NCBI GenBank assembly: GCA_029267355.1
Contig: JAJUJA010000005.1
Span: forward strand, 1-59,447
Reading direction: 5' to 3'
Length of the DNA stretch: 59,447 nucleotides
Origin: Elusimicrobiota bacterium
GTDB taxonomy: Bacteria; Elusimicrobiota; Elusimicrobia; Elusimicrobiales; UBA9959
Positions 1-6,519 of this stretch are shown here, piece by piece. A model generated the notes under the pieces. It made no database searches, was not told where the DNA came from, and was given only the letters and a program-made list of their open reading frames with translations. Made by a program: the position numbers and the translations under genes. The first letter of the stretch is position 1; each line of letters begins with the position of its first letter.

Positions 1-107
1 CCGCCTCAAAGCTCTGAAATCTACAGTGTATTCCGGTTTTTTCTTTTCGAGCAATTCGGATGTTTCTTTTGCCGCCTCAAAGCTCTGAAATCTACAGTGT
101 ATTCCGG
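1..107 (-). CRISPR. Type V-B CRISPR array, leader-proximal end (2 repeats, 1 spacer visible)
   Basis: Two identical 36-base repeats lie at 1-36 and 72-107, separated by a 35-base spacer at 37-71. The array continues past the left edge of the window, so its length is unknown. The cas genes and the tracrRNA candidate are all on the minus strand, and the anti-repeat is complementary to the repeat read from the minus strand. The array is therefore inferred to be transcribed leftward. In that orientation the repeat starts CCGGAATACACTG and ends GCTTTGAGGCGG, and the 3' end would be the part kept in mature crRNA. No copy of the spacer was noticed elsewhere in the window by eye. Confidence 0.93.
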
Positions 108-221
108 AGCCGCTACATTAAATGATTATTTCTGCAGTGTTTTTTTAATATTTCGCGAGTGTGAATCAATTTAACATTCATATGCGGCATAAAAATAGCT
201 CTATGTGATTTTTTTCATATT
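108..221 (-). other. CRISPR leader region
   Basis: AT-rich, gene-free stretch between a terminator-like hairpin (222-274) and the first repeat. It is expected to hold the array promoter and the integration-proximal leader. A TTGATT box can be read on the minus strand near 165-170, but no convincing -10 follows at normal spacing, so no promoter is assigned. A ten-base stretch at 131-140 (TCTGCAGTGT) resembles the middle of the repeat but is not spaced as a repeat unit. Confidence 0.5.
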
Positions 222-274
222 CAAAAATCCTGCGAGCGCCACGTATAATACGCCTCAGGATATAAGCACTCGCA
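222..274 (-). terminator. Terminator-like hairpin downstream of the tracrRNA
   Basis: On the minus strand TGCGAGTGC (274-266) pairs with GCGCTCGCA (239-231). This is a nine-pair stem whose only irregular pair is a U-G wobble; on the plus strand the same position would be a C-A mismatch, so the structure fits a minus-strand RNA. The loop carries a small nested CGTA/TACG stem. GGATTTTTG follows directly. It could end the tracrRNA or the whole cas transcript before the array. Confidence 0.5.
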
Positions 275-284
275 TCAAGTAACA

Positions 285-372
285 CACAGCAAAAAATAAC
301 AAGAACACACGCAGGTTTCAAAGAACTTTGTCTTTTCAATGGCGGGGAAAAGATGGTCGTTGGCCTTAGCCA
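285..372 (-). ncRNA. tracrRNA candidate of the type V-B system
   Basis: The gap between cas2 and the array holds a sequence that can pair with nearly the full crRNA repeat. Minus-strand bases 330-300 read CAAAGTTCTTTGAAACC and continue; they match the complement of the repeat with a two-base bulge, a one-base gap and mostly A-to-G or C-to-T changes that keep G-U pairs. A second short block, CCGCC at 345-341, complements the GGCGG 3' end of the repeat. Cas12b guides are known to pair with their crRNA in two separate blocks like this. Near the 5' end TGGC-TAAG-GCCA can form a hairpin. The 3' end is set at a U-rich run (TTATTTTTTG); a longer form could run to the hairpin at 222-274. Ends are inferred. 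Confidence 0.72.
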
Positions 373-377
373 CTAAT

Positions 378-406
378 AGTCTAGCAAAAAATTTTAAAAA
401 AATCAA
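378..406 (-). promoter_or_regulatory. Promoter for the tracrRNA candidate
   Basis: On the minus strand TTGATT (406-401) and TAGACT (383-378) are separated by exactly 17 bases, just downstream of the cas2 stop. Transcription would start near 371-372, at the start of the tracrRNA candidate. The match is to sigma70 consensus by eye only. Confidence 0.5.
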
Positions 407-422
407 GCAATAAATTTAAGCA

Positions 423-716
423 TCATATAATGGTGATTCTTGTCTTACCGCAATAAGGCCTCCCTATGGACTCTACTCGTACATTAGCATCCCCACTTTC
501 GGGACCCAAAGAAATAAACAGAACCTGATCATCTTCATGATTTAGCTCTTTTTGAATTTGTGATTTTAACTTTTCATACCTAAAATCATTCAAATGAGTC
601 TCAAAAACTGAATTCTGCAAACGGCGTCCATAACCTTCCATAATCCTGGCAATATTTCTTAAACGATGCGGGTTACTAATATCGTAGCTTACAATGTAAA
701 CCTTATTTCTGCTCAT
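423..716 (-). CDS. cas2: CRISPR-associated endonuclease Cas2
   Basis: A 97-residue ferredoxin-fold protein of typical Cas2 length. Cas2 dimers bridge two Cas1 dimers in the spacer-integration complex. The N-terminal beta strand VYIVSYDIS carries the conserved Asp12 of the family, followed by helix residues RLRNIARIMEGYGRRLQNSVFE, shown here only in outline: R-rich, with the QNSVFE strand typical of Cas2. The start overlaps the end of the cas4-cas1 gene by four bases, so the two are translationally coupled. It is the last protein gene before the tracrRNA candidate and the array. Assignment is secure from sequence and position. Confidence 0.95.
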   Translation of the reverse strand: MSRNKVYIVSYDISNPHRLRNIARIMEGYGRRLQNSVFETHLNDFRYEKLKSQIQKELNHEDDQVLFISLGPESGDANVRVESIGRPYCGKTRITII

Positions 717-2404
717 CTAGTAGTAAATGATGTGTAGGTATCTGCTTCGCCTCGTAAAAATCTCCAAAGCTGCCTAGCTTGTATTTCAAACATTCTCCTG
801 TAACTCATTTTGTAACCAAAAACAGGGTGTGTTATTTCCGTATCAAGCCTCCTAACCCATCCCTGCCAAAACGTTCTTCGCCCACCATCATTTAAGTTAC
901 ACCCACTAGAAGAAAACATGAAATCTGATTTCAAGTCAAGTTCCCCCCTATTAATCAAAGAAATTACAAGACTATCAACGATAAGCGGCCTAAATTCCTC
1001 CATAAGATCAAGAGCCAAAGCAGGCCTCCCATACCTCGGGTGATGGTAAAACCCAAGAAATGGGTCAAGGCCTACTGTGTAACACACGCCCGTAATCTCT
1101 TTTGCGAGAACGCTATAACCCAAAGAAAGGAGTGAATTCACCGGGTCCCTTGGCGGCCGACGGTTCCTATTTTTAAAATCGAAACTAATATTTTTTATCA
1201 TCGTTGAAAATTGAGAAAAATAAATTGCTGCCGCTTCACCTTCAATACCAAGAAGCTGATTTTCATTTTCAGCACTGTTGGCCTTATCTTTCAGATATTT
1301 CATCTTCCCAATGAAGATTTCATTGGGCTCGCCGTTTCTCATTAATAGAACTCTTTGGTTGGTAATCTTTCCTCTTATTATTTCTCTTGAAAGTTTCATT
1401 TTTATTTCTGGGTTATCAAAAAGCATGTACTGAGCACGTCTTGCGTCAATACCTGAGACAGGTAAACCGCGCAAAAGGCCAAGAAATCTTCCAGAAGATG
1501 AAAAATATGAAACATCTATATTTTCCTCAAGACATGTCTGCATCAGTTGTGCACTTATTTGAACAGGCCCGTATAGGTATATAGAACGAAGCTGATGCAC
1601 AGGAATTTTGCTTGCTGCAATACCATCACAACTTACATATATTTCTTCCCCGTGTTTCCCGACATAGGCTTTAGGATTTTGCACCACCAAAACTTCCCCA
1701 TCGTCGCTGTCAGCCATTGGCGGTTTAATTTCATTTTCAGATTTTGAATCTGGGTTTGCCCAATATCTGCTTTCGTTTGGTAAGCAAACCGGATAAGCCG
1801 AACAGTATAAACATCTACTATCATCTTTTAGAGGTGGAGGGCACTTGCCGGATGCCGCTAGTTCTCTTGCGTCAAGAATAAGTTTCCTTACCTTTTCAAA
1901 TAAATCCTCAGTTAAATCAACAGGCACACGTTTTTTATCAGCAGCATAATAAACGAAAGCCCTGTTTACGGCAAGGCCGTTCTCTCTCATTAACAAGGCC
2001 TGTGCTGCAATTTGCATGGCATCAGGTTCCTTGACAGCATATTCACCCTCACTAAGATGTCGTGAAGAGCCTCTTTTATACTCAACAATTTCTGTTAAAT
2101 TCGCATCTTTCTCAATTATGTCTATTACACCCACAAGTCCAAGTGATTTGCTTTCCAATTTGAGACTTTTTATCGTAGTGCCATCGGAAAGTTCAAATTT
2201 ATCTATATCTGAAAACTTAGATGGTTGATCCACATTCCTATGAACATAACTCCCAGAAACTGTATCGGCATTTTCCTGAAAGATATTCTCCACCCACTGT
2301 AAATAAAAAAGCCGCGGGCAGTAAACAAAGTTGTGAAGATTGCGGATGCCCATTACAGGCTGCTTTCCATAGTCATTGTCTATCCTAAGATGTGAGTCTG
2401 TCAT
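713..2404 (-). CDS. cas4-cas1: Cas4-Cas1 fusion protein (CRISPR adaptation)
   Basis: 563 residues holding two enzymes. Residues 20-215 are a Cas4 RecB-like nuclease: Cys29 and the C-terminal trio Cys198, Cys201 and Cys207 are placed to bind an iron-sulphur cluster, with the IVEYKRG nuclease motif between. Residues 235-563 are Cas1, with its metal-binding residues in LLGIEGEAA (Glu388), GFYHHPRYGR (His454) and LALDLMEE (Asp466). Cas4 trims prespacers and checks the PAM; Cas1 integrates them. Fused Cas4-Cas1 is characteristic of type V-B loci, which agrees with the neighbouring effector. The start lies 38 bases after the cas12b stop. All expected active-site residues are visible, so the adaptation module looks intact. 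Confidence 0.95.
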   Translation of the reverse strand: MTDSHLRIDNDYGKQPVMGIRNLHNFVYCPRLFYLQWVENIFQENADTVSGSYVHRNVDQPSKFSDIDKFELSDGTTIKSLKLESKSLGLVGVIDIIEKDANLTEIVEYKRGSSRHLSEGEYAVKEPDAMQIAAQALLMRENGLAVNRAFVYYAADKKRVPVDLTEDLFEKVRKLILDARELAASGKCPPPLKDDSRCLYCSAYPVCLPNESRYWANPDSKSENEIKPPMADSDDGEVLVVQNPKAYVGKHGEEIYVSCDGIAASKIPVHQLRSIYLYGPVQISAQLMQTCLEENIDVSYFSSSGRFLGLLRGLPVSGIDARRAQYMLFDNPEIKMKLSREIIRGKITNQRVLLMRNGEPNEIFIGKMKYLKDKANSAENENQLLGIEGEAAAIYFSQFSTMIKNISFDFKNRNRRPPRDPVNSLLSLGYSVLAKEITGVCYTVGLDPFLGFYHHPRYGRPALALDLMEEFRPLIVDSLVISLINRGELDLKSDFMFSSSGCNLNDGGRRTFWQGWVRRLDTEITHPVFGYKMSYRRMFEIQARQLWRFLRGEADTYTSFTTR

Positions 2405-2442: not shown

Positions 2443-5400
2443 TTACTGTACCTTTTCCCCGTTAATCTTAGCGCATACTACCCATTCCAAATCCCTTACG
2501 GTTTTCCATAATGCTTCCCCGCTAAAAACTTTTATACCTTTGCCTTCCAATTCTGCACAACCCCACTGAACCTTACCAGAAATATCTATAAAATAGTTCG
2601 GGTTCCTGTCTTCCTCCTCATCAGATGATCCTTGATTTTTGTTAAGAATTTTTACAGATTCATTTCCTAAAAACCTTTTTTCGTTCGCATAAATATCATT
2701 TTTGATTTTCTTGCTGCGAATACGAGAATGTATAGATAATTCTTCAGGGGATGCTATTGCTCTCAGGCCAATATTCACCGCTGCATTTACGTCAGCCTGA
2801 ATTATTTTTGGCTTAAGCCCGTCCCTTTCTGTTTCAAAAGTTATAGGAATGAAGATTGGGCCTCCGCTGATAGGCAGAAGAATTGTATTTTTTTTATTAC
2901 CTCCAGACAAATTTTCCATATTCTTAAGAAGCTTTTTCGCTTCCTGTATTTTGACAGCCATCTCTGTATAAGACCCATCCTTATTTTTTTTCTCCTTCAG
3001 CCAAGACCATGGGGCGGTATTTTCAAAACCACTGGAAACTTCAACTGCTCTGAAACCTGCAACACCGGTTCGAGAACAAAATCGGGAAGAATAAGCTGCC
3101 GGCACCTCGATTACCATGGGAATATTCTTTTTACCAACTTTTATAGAGGGATAAAAAACTTCAGAAAACATTTTTAATTTATCTATCACAGCCCTGTGAC
3201 ACCATTTCATTAAGCGGCTATTTTCTCTGGGTGCTCTGCCTTGAGAAGAAAGATAACGCGACAAATTTTCAACAACTATAAAATCAACAGGTTCATATTG
3301 TCTCTCATAACTACCATGGTGGTCTCCGATGTTACCTTTGCTATTTTCTGATGGTTTTGAAAGTCTGAGACCGAGAGCCTTAGCAATTATCATATGAGCT
3401 GTTTGATTAATCCGCTCTTCCTTAATTCTGTCCAGCTTCTCCAATATATCAGGACAACAATCAGGTATTGACTCATCTCTGCTAATAATGAAATCTTCAC
3501 TTGTTTTACGTCTTAATAAATGATTCATGGATTGGAAACGCTTGCGAAGTTCAGTCAATTGCTCTAATCTAGACATAGATAAACCTCTTTGCCCACAAAC
3601 AAGAACATTTTTGGGGGCAGAACCATTTTGGGTAAGAATACCATAATCCGTGTTCTGCGGATGTCTTTCCCATTTCCAACTTCTACCTCTCAAGGGCAAT
3701 ATGCGATTTGCTATACTAACGAGTATATCAGGCAGTTCTCTCTTTCTCTTCTCTATCTCTTTTTTTATTTCATCCAAAACAGCTTCTTTGTTCGATTGAA
3801 TGTTTTTTTTCCAATAATCAGGAATACTGCTATCTTCTTGTATTTCGTTAACTGCAATACCAATCTTATTTCCCAGGCCTAAAAAAAATGCCCATCTGTA
3901 AAGTTTAGATAAATATGTTTGATATCTTTTGACGGCGACGAGCAGCTTATCATTCTGCTCGGGGAATGAAAGATCTACCTTCCAATTTGGCGCTAGACTA
4001 TTTTCAACATCGAAGCCAAGTTTTAAAAAAAGAGCTTCTGCCTCTTTTGACTCATAATCCAAAGATTTACGTCCTTTTGATCCGGATAACTCTTCAAGAT
4101 ATTTGAACTCTCCATTGTCATCTTTACGCCATATTTTTACATCCTCCCCATGCAACCTTAACAGGCCAATATCGACGACCTTTGAATACCATTTATTTGT
4201 TCCATCAAAACCTATGTATCTTGATTTACCATCACTTTTCTTTGAAATTTTCAACCTCGCGTACGCTCCGGCATTTCTTTGACCAAGATCTACGGAAAGA
4301 CATGAAAATGAATCCAACATATCCCACCATCCTTTTTCAGGAGGATTTTTAGGTTTTTCTTCATTTGGCCAACGAAGACTGTTAATAGTCTCATGCCCGA
4401 AATTAAATTGCCCTTTCCAATTAATCCCTCTAGAAACTTTTTTTTGGATATTTTCACTCTTGAGCTCAACAGGAAACACGAGCTGAATATTGTCCATCGC
4501 ATAGGGCATTAGAGTAACCTTGGTTCTATCAAAGTTTTGATTATCATATTCTTTAATACCTAGAGCTTTCATCATAGGCTGAATCCAAGAAACAGACCCA
4601 AGGTTTTCTTCTCCTTCATGACGCAAGGCATCTCTAATCATACGGGGGGAGGAATAAGTTATCTTTATTTTCTTGACAATATACGGCATAGTCCCGCCAT
4701 TATTTTTTACACACAGGTGTACTTCCAATGACATATGGCCGTGAACATCCAATCCTTTTACATGACTCGCAGAATACTCGCCATCTTTTGGAAAATCAAA
4801 ATAGCGCGGAGAAAAAGTAGAATGAGCCGGGGTAAAATGTATGGGCCTTGTTTTATCTTTGTAGTCAAGTAAAAGAACACTATAGTTCATCCATGCATAC
4901 AAAACATCCTTTGCGTGATACTGCTCAGTTCCTTCATCTCGCCATATCGGCTGGTATTTTTCTTCAATGAGAGCATTAAACAATGGGGCACTGCCGAAAT
5001 CATCGTAATGTGCGGACTGTAATTCAACAAGAGTTTTTTTAAGCCTCAATCTCAATTCAACCTGTTCAAGATTTTGTCGGGCCAATTTTAGCCACTTATC
5101 ACGCAATTCCTTGTATCCACGCAAAGTTCTTTGAGATACTGAGTATTCTCTTATTCCGGATGATACCCCGTCTTCTGACTCAGTCAAGTAGCCAAGTTTA
5201 TTACAGAGAAGATCTTTAATCAGTTCAACTCTTTTATCATCTTTAAATCCAGGTATTACTATCTCTTCTTTATCATCGCCTTGAATTGAATGTTTAGTTA
5301 ATGATCCTTCACCTTCAAAAAAATCTATTTTTCTCTTTATTTCTTTAGCCTCTTCATCTCTTTTTTGGGTATCTTCAAAATATCTATGAGGGGCAATTAT

Positions 5401-6519
5401 TGCCTCTATAAAAGCAGCTAAATCCATTTGGAACCATGAGGCCCTATTGTTCTTTTTATTGGCAATTACCAAGTTGGTGAAATATTCAAACGGGTTTTGA
5501 TTATTATTCGAACTTCTTAAAGCATTAAGATAATCAATTGACTGTAGCGTATTTTCTTTTCCTCCTTCCTTGTTACTTTTCTTTGCTCTTACAAACTCAC
5601 TTTTTGTAAGTTTCTGAAATATAGCAACAATATCTCTGTGAGGAAAGTAGCTAAAAACCACCGCACATGGAAATACACCAGAAGGCTTTCTACCCAATTT
5701 CTTAAGAGGCTTTCCTTTAATTTTCTCTCTCAATCTTTTCTCGTATTCTCCTCTAAGTTGCCTTATATTATCATATTTCTTCGAGAGATCGTCAAAATAT
5801 TTAATTGCAAGAGACTCACCTGAATCTTCAAGCTTTTTATCCTCAGGGATTTTAGTAATGAAAAGGTAGGGATTAACTTCTTCTGAAAGTTTATTTAGTT
5901 TTTCTTCGTCTAAATTTTCTTCATGAAGCTTTTTTATGAAAGGCAGTCTCCCTATCTTTTGTTTTTCAGATTCATCTTTTGATGTAGCATTAAAACATTC
6001 TTTCTTGGAACATAAAAAAGGCAAAACTTCGCTGCAAACTTTGTTTAAATCGCGACCTCTGGAAATATCCAACAAGTAAAGCAGGGCTAATCCCATATTT
6101 TTGGAATCTCCATTATATAACTTACTAATCTCTTTCTTACAAGAATCAAAATCAGATTTACAATTGAGCAGTTTAGAAATTTTTAATCCTGGCCCATCAA
6201 ATTCAATAAATCTCTTCTTCCCTTTAGTCCAGTTATTTCTGACCTCATTGGACCAATCAGCTACAGCTTTAATTTTGGCTTTAGCATTAGACTTTTCATC
6301 AGGCTCATTAAATAAACTTAAATATTTTTTTTCGAAGTCTCCTGATTTGCAAGTTTCAGCCATAGTTGCCAGCATAAGAGTATAATAGTTTACTGCATCT
6401 TGAAAGAGCTCGTGATGGTGCCAAAGAATATTTTGCCACTCAGATTTCGACATTTTTCCCCATTGTCCAGCATTATAAGACTCAACCTCAATAACTTTAC
6501 CCTGATACATTCTGTTCAT
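2443..6519 (-). CDS. cas12b: Cas12b (C2c1), type V-B CRISPR effector nuclease
   Basis: 1358 residues. Cas12b is a single-protein, dual-RNA-guided DNA nuclease that uses one RuvC site to cut both strands next to a T-rich PAM. The three split RuvC motifs are present: CLSVDLGQRNAG with Asp744, FIVVENLSRYL with Glu1084, and IIQADVNAAVN with Asp1243. Between motifs II and III, ENSRLMKWCHR and AAYSSRFCSRTGVAG match the corresponding Cas12b segments. RGLSMSRLEQLTELRKR precedes motif II. No HNH domain is seen. The first 740 residues, the recognition lobe, diverge and are not resolved by eye. The protein is longer than well-known family members of roughly 1100-1130 residues. The start is fixed by GGAGG five bases before ATG. 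Intact, no frameshift. Confidence 0.95.
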   Translation of the reverse strand: MNRMYQGKVIEVESYNAGQWGKMSKSEWQNILWHHHELFQDAVNYYTLMLATMAETCKSGDFEKKYLSLFNEPDEKSNAKAKIKAVADWSNEVRNNWTKGKKRFIEFDGPGLKISKLLNCKSDFDSCKKEISKLYNGDSKNMGLALLYLLDISRGRDLNKVCSEVLPFLCSKKECFNATSKDESEKQKIGRLPFIKKLHEENLDEEKLNKLSEEVNPYLFITKIPEDKKLEDSGESLAIKYFDDLSKKYDNIRQLRGEYEKRLREKIKGKPLKKLGRKPSGVFPCAVVFSYFPHRDIVAIFQKLTKSEFVRAKKSNKEGGKENTLQSIDYLNALRSSNNNQNPFEYFTNLVIANKKNNRASWFQMDLAAFIEAIIAPHRYFEDTQKRDEEAKEIKRKIDFFEGEGSLTKHSIQGDDKEEIVIPGFKDDKRVELIKDLLCNKLGYLTESEDGVSSGIREYSVSQRTLRGYKELRDKWLKLARQNLEQVELRLRLKKTLVELQSAHYDDFGSAPLFNALIEEKYQPIWRDEGTEQYHAKDVLYAWMNYSVLLLDYKDKTRPIHFTPAHSTFSPRYFDFPKDGEYSASHVKGLDVHGHMSLEVHLCVKNNGGTMPYIVKKIKITYSSPRMIRDALRHEGEENLGSVSWIQPMMKALGIKEYDNQNFDRTKVTLMPYAMDNIQLVFPVELKSENIQKKVSRGINWKGQFNFGHETINSLRWPNEEKPKNPPEKGWWDMLDSFSCLSVDLGQRNAGAYARLKISKKSDGKSRYIGFDGTNKWYSKVVDIGLLRLHGEDVKIWRKDDNGEFKYLEELSGSKGRKSLDYESKEAEALFLKLGFDVENSLAPNWKVDLSFPEQNDKLLVAVKRYQTYLSKLYRWAFFLGLGNKIGIAVNEIQEDSSIPDYWKKNIQSNKEAVLDEIKKEIEKRKRELPDILVSIANRILPLRGRSWKWERHPQNTDYGILTQNGSAPKNVLVCGQRGLSMSRLEQLTELRKRFQSMNHLLRRKTSEDFIISRDESIPDCCPDILEKLDRIKEERINQTAHMIIAKALGLRLSKPSENSKGNIGDHHGSYERQYEPVDFIVVENLSRYLSSQGRAPRENSRLMKWCHRAVIDKLKMFSEVFYPSIKVGKKNIPMVIEVPAAYSSRFCSRTGVAGFRAVEVSSGFENTAPWSWLKEKKNKDGSYTEMAVKIQEAKKLLKNMENLSGGNKKNTILLPISGGPIFIPITFETERDGLKPKIIQADVNAAVNIGLRAIASPEELSIHSRIRSKKIKNDIYANEKRFLGNESVKILNKNQGSSDEEEDRNPNYFIDISGKVQWGCAELEGKGIKVFSGEALWKTVRDLEWVVCAKINGEKVQ

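What the first reader, a model, noticed from the sequence alone, without database searches (positions are those of the whole stretch)
285..406. tracrRNA with a two-block anti-repeat next to cas2
A promoter-like pair with 17-base spacing leads into an RNA that can pair with almost the whole repeat (300-330) and, separately, with its 3' GGCGG end (CCGCC at 341-345). Most substitutions relative to a perfect complement keep G-U pairs, which points to selection on RNA pairing. The block order equals that in known Cas12b guides.
Basis: seen in the sequence. Interest (0 to 1): 0.8.

Follow-up and report, generated by a model that had tools for sequence, protein, structure and literature searches.

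The report
Type V-B CRISPR tracrRNA beside cas2
The stretch encodes the helper RNA (tracrRNA) of an ordinary Cas12b CRISPR system in an uncultured Elusimicrobiota bacterium; it pairs with the CRISPR repeat at two places just as in known Cas12b systems, and relatives in many other phyla confirm it.

Summary
Confirmed, and ordinary. On the minus strand of window 285-406, between cas2 and the CRISPR array of a type V-B locus (Cas12b, fused Cas4-Cas1, Cas2), lies a tracrRNA: a 5' hairpin (372-361), a 7-bp stem (353-347 with 337-331) whose loop carries the short anti-repeat CCGCC (345-341), then the long anti-repeat (330-300). A covariance model built only from 18 tracrRNAs of other phyla finds 313-376 at 63.8 bits (E 2.9e-16), the only hit in the genome. 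In 22 related loci both helices covary and repeats pair far better with their own anti-repeats than with others (0 of 10,000 permutations). The promoter-like pair is weak alone (8 of 12 matches) but supported collectively. The architecture is the published V-B one: a new member of a known kind. Two side observations may matter more: a three-box leader motif with near-fixed spacing shared by V-B loci and at least one type I-G leader; and, in three Verrucomicrobiota loci (not the window), apparent natural single-guide RNAs upstream of cas12b whose guides partly match the cas operon start.

The parts
378..406 (-). promoter-like pair TTGATT (406-401), 17 nt, TAGACT (383-378)
   Evidence: 8 of 12 matches, alone not better than shuffles; collectively enriched at this position in 26 loci; nearest relative has TTGTTT-17-TATACT at the same place.
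361..372 (-). tracrRNA 5' hairpin P1, TGGC UAAG GCCA; predicted transcript start about 371-373
   Evidence: 4 of 4 pairs with changes on both sides; 84% of cells paired.
331..353 (-). tracrRNA stem P2 (353-347 with 337-331)
   Evidence: 98% of cells paired over 22 loci, 6 of 7 pairs with two-sided changes; 0 of 500 shuffles for the whole structure.
341..345 (-). short anti-repeat CCGCC, in the P2 loop, pairs with repeat 3' end GGCGG
   Evidence: compensatory CCGTC with GACGG in L055, GTGCC with GGCAC in L090, L092, L093, L094 and A. dauci.
300..330 (-). long anti-repeat
   Evidence: score 44, ranks first of 22 in both directions; 0 of 200 shuffles in the intergenic stretch.
313..376 (-). match of covariance model R1, built without Elusimicrobiota sequences
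   Evidence: 63.8 bits, E 2.9e-16 in the window, 9.2e-15 in the genome, only hit.
72..107 (-). first (leader-proximal) CRISPR repeat CCGGAATACACTGTAGATTTCAGAGCTTTGAGGCGG
1..36 (-). second repeat, at the contig end; nine more copies at the end of contig C11 of the same genome
   Evidence: spacers 34-35 nt.
37..71 (-). spacer, 35 nt
423..716 (-). cas2
   Evidence: TIGR01573, PF09827.
713..2404 (-). cas4-cas1 fusion
   Evidence: NF049935, 635 bits, cut-off 560.
2443..6519 (-). cas12b, 1358 aa
   Evidence: NF033949, 731 bits, cut-off 150; RuvC residues D744, E1084, D1243 invariant.
266..273 (-). leader box 1, GCGAGTGC (outside the finding)
232..239 (-). leader box 2, GCGCTCGC
   Evidence: box 1 to box 2 spacing 35-37 in 26 of 27 loci; shuffled mean 0.4.
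155..159 (-). leader box 3, CTCGC, 52 bases before the first repeat
   Evidence: CTCG at -54 to -50 in 24 of 27 loci; shuffled mean 0.6, maximum 4.

Best explanation
A transcript from the minus strand starting near 371-373 is the tracrRNA of this type V-B CRISPR system. It folds a short 5' hairpin and a second stem whose loop exposes CCGCC. Its 3' part (330-300) pairs with most of the CRISPR repeat and CCGCC pairs with the repeat's last five bases, forming the dual guide that loads Cas12b next to the spacer. Shown here: sequence, conserved secondary structure, co-evolution with the repeat, gene context. Inferred from known V-B systems: transcription, trimming (probably by RNase III) of the long duplex, loading into Cas12b, RNA-guided cleavage of invading DNA.
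For: Covariance model from other phyla only hits 313-376 minus, E 2.9e-16, sole hit in the genome. Of 336 genomes of the phylum, strong hits occur only in the three that have a Cas12b of this kind. 93% of helix cells paired, 10 of 11 pairs with two-sided changes, 0 of 500 shuffles, every slid control far lower. Own repeat and own anti-repeat score 48.0 against 32.7 (sd 1.4) permuted, 0 of 10,000. Compensatory change in the short block: GACGG with CCGTC in L055; GGCAC with GTGCC in the other clade. Co-fold gives hairpin 1, CCGCC:GGCGG and the long duplex at once. Cas12b, Cas4-Cas1 fusion, Cas2 and array adjoin.
Against: No transcript data. The promoter is weak by itself. The single strand folded alone prefers another structure. 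Raw complementarity over 8 kb is not exceptional. The array is cut by the contig end, and its join to contig C11 is inferred from identical repeats only.
Confidence: 0.97

Rival explanations
1. A decayed, non-functional tracrRNA in a dying locus.
For: No expression data; locus at a contig end; long anti-repeat has 2 mismatches and bulges; a distal repeat in the array is slightly degenerate.
Against: cas12b, cas4-cas1 and cas2 are intact frames, RuvC residues kept, at least 11 repeats, nearly all identical, own anti-repeat still ranks first of 22.
Confidence: 0.02
2. Chance complementarity in an A+T-rich leader; no RNA gene here.
For: Over 8 kb, raw complementarity score 44 is near what shuffled repeats reach (mean 40.5, maximum 49); promoter alone not significant.
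Against: E 2.9e-16 with a model from other phyla; covariation; conserved position between cas2 and array in dozens of loci.
Confidence: 0.005
3. The RNA extends into the leader hairpin (boxes 1 and 2), which would be its 3' end or terminator, rather than ending in the anti-repeat.
For: An inverted repeat follows the anti-repeat in 26 of 27 loci.
Against: The interior does not fold better than shuffles (mean z -0.06), spacing is nearly fixed as for a DNA site, there is no T-run, box 3 repeats the motif at -52, and a type I-G leader without tracrRNA has the same boxes.
Confidence: 0.08

Closest known systems
Type V-B (Cas12b/C2c1) tracrRNA, e.g. Alicyclobacillus, Bacillus hisashii
   Same: Stem-loop 1, stem-loop 2 with the short anti-repeat in its loop, long anti-repeat at the 3' end; gene order Cas12b, Cas1, Cas2, tracrRNA, array (PMC11246509, PMC11423069; A. 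dauci).
   Different: Repeat ends GGCGG rather than the CAC seen in 13 of 15 orthologs of PMC11423069; the short block is CCGCC instead of GTGCC; primary sequence otherwise diverged.
V-B loci of Verrucomicrobiota, Nitrospirae, Deltaproteobacteria and others with GAGGCGG repeats (L052-L087)
   Same: Related Cas12b (best-segment identity about 29-53%), same tracrRNA core, same repeat 3' end.
   Different: The variable 5' two thirds of the repeat and the matching anti-repeat.
tracr-L of type II-A (natural single guide; PMC11417352)
   Same: The cis-fused tracrRNA-repeat-guide elements seen upstream of cas12b in L055, L081 and L084 resemble it in layout and likely purpose.
   Different: Cas12b instead of Cas9; a separate copy of the RNA rather than a long form of the same gene; none found in the window.

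Membership tests
Type V-B CRISPR-Cas system | Cas12b effector with RuvC catalytic residues | tested here: met
   NF033949 731 bits, cut-off 150; D744, E1084, D1243 invariant.
Type V-B CRISPR-Cas system | fused Cas4-Cas1 and Cas2 | tested here: met
   NF049935 635 bits, cut-off 560; TIGR01573.
Type V-B CRISPR-Cas system | CRISPR array with 36-nt repeats and 34-36-nt spacers | tested here: met
Type V-B tracrRNA | long repeat/anti-repeat duplex with the cognate repeat | tested here: met
Type V-B tracrRNA | short anti-repeat in the loop of stem 2, pairing with the repeat 3' end | tested here: met
   compensatory GACGG/CCGTC.
Type V-B tracrRNA | 5' hairpin and stem 2 conserved by covariation | tested here: met
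   leave-clade-out covariance search.
Type V-B tracrRNA | expressed and required for DNA cleavage by Cas12b | not testable with these tools
   Needs RNA sequencing and a cleavage assay.
Any curated Rfam family | match at the family's gathering score | tested here: not met
   nothing above gathering score in 1-2500.

The most novel reading that the evidence does not exclude
The tracrRNA family found here has, in relatives, given rise to natural single-guide RNAs: L055, L081 and L084 carry, upstream of cas12b, a tracrRNA core fused in cis to a repeat remnant and a guide whose best nearby match lies upstream of the cas operon, each preceded by 5'-AATC, so Cas12b may repress its own operon as Cas9 does with tracr-L. 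The window itself has no such copy.
Probability: 0.55. Interest if true: 0.72.

Novelty: new member of a known kind. Interest (0 to 1): 0.35.

Why it matters
It places a complete dual-guide RNA, with its cognate repeat, next to a diverged Cas12b (1358 aa, GGCGG-ended repeats) from a little-studied phylum, so this clade of enzymes can be tested with the right RNA. The set of 22 loci gives a covariance model for V-B tracrRNAs; no Rfam family matched this stretch. The side observations make two open questions testable: which leader DNA the Cas4-Cas1/Cas2 integrase needs, and whether Cas12b controls its own expression through natural single guides.

Tried and rejected
Rfam search: no family. Single-protein searches of genome and viral contigs found no relatives; an alignment query did. 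Raw complementarity over 8 kb as evidence: not significant, rejected as an argument. Single-strand MFE of the tracrRNA as evidence: rejected. Promoter by consensus alone: rejected as stand-alone evidence. Leader hairpin as tracrRNA terminator: disfavoured. A natural single guide, or a crRNA matching the window's own cas12b promoter: looked for, not found. G129 model hit of 27 bits: not pursued after a look at the sequence, probably chance. Centring a genome search on Verrucomicrobiota was not possible.

Full report
What the window is. The window is one contig (C50) of a 1.93-Mb genome in 152 contigs. The nearest named relatives with this system are Elusimicrobia (G327 and G112 correspond in contig length and position to Elusimicrobia records). 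Its left end holds cas12b (6519-2443), a cas4-cas1 fusion (2404-713) and cas2 (716-423), all on the minus strand, with family models well over their cut-offs. A CRISPR array of 36-nt repeats begins at 107 and runs to the contig end; nine more copies of the repeat end contig C11 of the same genome. That the two contigs join is inferred from the identical repeats, not shown.

The observation. All coordinates hold once read on the minus strand: TTGATT (406-401), 17 nt, TAGACT (383-378); hairpin TGGC-UAAG-GCCA (372-361); stem TCTTTTC/GAAAAGA (353-347 with 337-331) with loop CCCGCCATT; CCGCC at 345-341; long anti-repeat 330-300. The long block makes 23 Watson-Crick and 4 G-U pairs with the repeat, with 2 mismatches and small bulges.

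Is it more than chance? By raw complementarity over 8 kb, no: a chance match inside cas12b scores slightly higher and shuffled repeats come close. Within the 315-base intergenic stretch, yes: 44 against 28.2 (sd 3.0), 0 of 200 shuffles, and co-folding with the repeat gives -27.6 against -8.2 (sd 3.2) kcal/mol, 0 of 200, forming hairpin 1, the short duplex and the long duplex. The RNA folded alone does not show the structure. The second stem and the short duplex form a pseudoknot that nested folding cannot show together; enforcing the two stems gives -39.3 against -39.4 kcal/mol.

Comparative evidence. Search by family in the phylum and by alignment in GTDB genomes gave Cas12b loci from Elusimicrobiota, Verrucomicrobiota, Lentisphaerae, Nitrospirae, Deltaproteobacteria, Alpha- and Gammaproteobacteria, Myxococcales, Acidobacteria and Planctomycetota, as named in the records. 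In 22 with a usable array the element lies between cas2 and the array, with the core GGC...GCC, CGACCA, stem, CCGCCATT, stem, CA, anti-repeat. Both helices covary: 93% of cells paired, 10 of 11 pairs with two-sided changes, 48 such cells against 10.9 expected, 0 of 500 shuffles, slid controls far lower. Repeats differ between loci and on average fit their own anti-repeats: 48.0 against 32.7 (sd 1.4), best of 10,000 permutations 39.3; the window's pair ranks first both ways, while some loci with very similar repeats do not. The short block covaries: GACGG with CCGTC in L055; GGCAC with GTGCC in the other Elusimicrobiota clade, in L093 and in A. dauci. A covariance model built from 18 sequences without any Elusimicrobiota finds window 313-376 at 63.8 bits, E 2.9e-16, alone in the genome.

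Promoter. The pair scores 8 of 12, no better than shuffles of the same A+T-rich stretch (P=0.55). Over 26 loci the mean is 8.1 against 6.8 (sd 0.16), in most loci ending 24-27 bases before stem 2, so a promoter there is likely. The two nearest relatives have TTGTTT-17-TATACT and TTGACA-17-TAGCAT at the same place.

How it works. As in V-B systems (established knowledge; PMC11246509, PMC11423069, PMC6255809): tracrRNA and crRNA pair through a long and a short duplex, stem-loop 2 is essential, and Cas12b uses the pair to cut DNA. The first steps are supported here by sequence; expression, processing and cleavage are inferred.

Known or new. The architecture is the published one. What differs is the GGCGG repeat end (PMC11423069 reports CAC in 13 of 15 orthologs) and the host phylum. 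New member of a known kind.

Beyond the finding, 1: leader boxes. In 26 of 27 loci an inverted pair CGAG...CTCG (CGGG in one) lies 35-37 bases apart downstream of the anti-repeat (shuffled mean 0.4), and in 24 of 27 a further CTCG starts 50-54 bases before the first repeat (shuffled mean 0.6, maximum 4). It is present in A. dauci and in a type I-G (annotated I-U) locus of Cereibacter sphaeroides, a type with no tracrRNA (CGAG-35-CTCG, and CTCG at -52). In Rhodothermus marinus the inverted pair is present but no CTCG at -52. The three type I-C leaders read have an analogous GCGAACC/GGTTCGC pair (by eye). I read it as a DNA site of the Cas4-Cas1/Cas2 adaptation module (inferred); the paper searches gave no description of it, but conserved leader motifs are known in other subtypes, so novelty is uncertain.

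Beyond the finding, 2: natural single guides. Upstream of cas12b in L055 (970-1102), L081 (330-398) and L084 (about 410-513), the tracrRNA core is followed in cis by a hairpin and a repeat-like end (TTTGAGGCGG, CCTGAGGCGG, TTGGTGCGG) and then a guide. L055 folds better than shuffles (z -2.2); the other two do not. Each guide's best match between itself and cas12b is preceded by AATC in all three; shuffled guides match as well in 4, 46 and 31 of 2000 cases, and with AATC in 0, 1 and 0. This looks like type II-A tracr-L (PMC11417352). It rests on three loci and no experiment. The window has none.

Noticed in passing
window 266-273, 232-239, 155-159 (minus strand); 26 other loci: Three-box leader motif: GCGAG and CTCGC as an inverted pair 35-37 bases apart, and CTCG at about -52 from the first repeat, in V-B loci of many phyla including Alicyclobacillus dauci (L103) and in a type I-G leader (L105); R. 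marinus (L104) has the inverted pair only. Probably a DNA site of the adaptation module.
   Followed up: partly
L055 970-1102; L081 330-398; L084 about 410-513: Apparent natural single-guide RNAs (tracrRNA core fused to a repeat remnant and a guide) upstream of cas12b, with guides partly matching the start of the cas operon, each match preceded by 5'-AATC.
   Followed up: partly
L087 2861-2995: Two tandem tracrRNA copies before the array; the second has only a short match to the repeat.
   Followed up: no
L070 14917-15010; L081 9267-9400: tracrRNAs with an apparently duplicated anti-repeat, the second copy seeming to fit the repeat better than the first.
   Followed up: no
L055 1239-1536; L081 513-846: A small open frame of roughly 100 codons between the single-guide element and cas12b in two loci; relation to each other not tested.
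   Followed up: no
L106, L107, L108 leaders: Type I-C leaders show a GCGAACC/GGTTCGC inverted pair in a similar place, seen by eye.
   Followed up: no
L090-L094, L025-L029: Elusimicrobiota hold two other kinds of Cas12b (about 1067 and 1450-1495 aa); those with an array have GGCAC-ended repeats and GTGCC tracrRNAs; the long kind is closest to PDB 9kln.
   Followed up: partly
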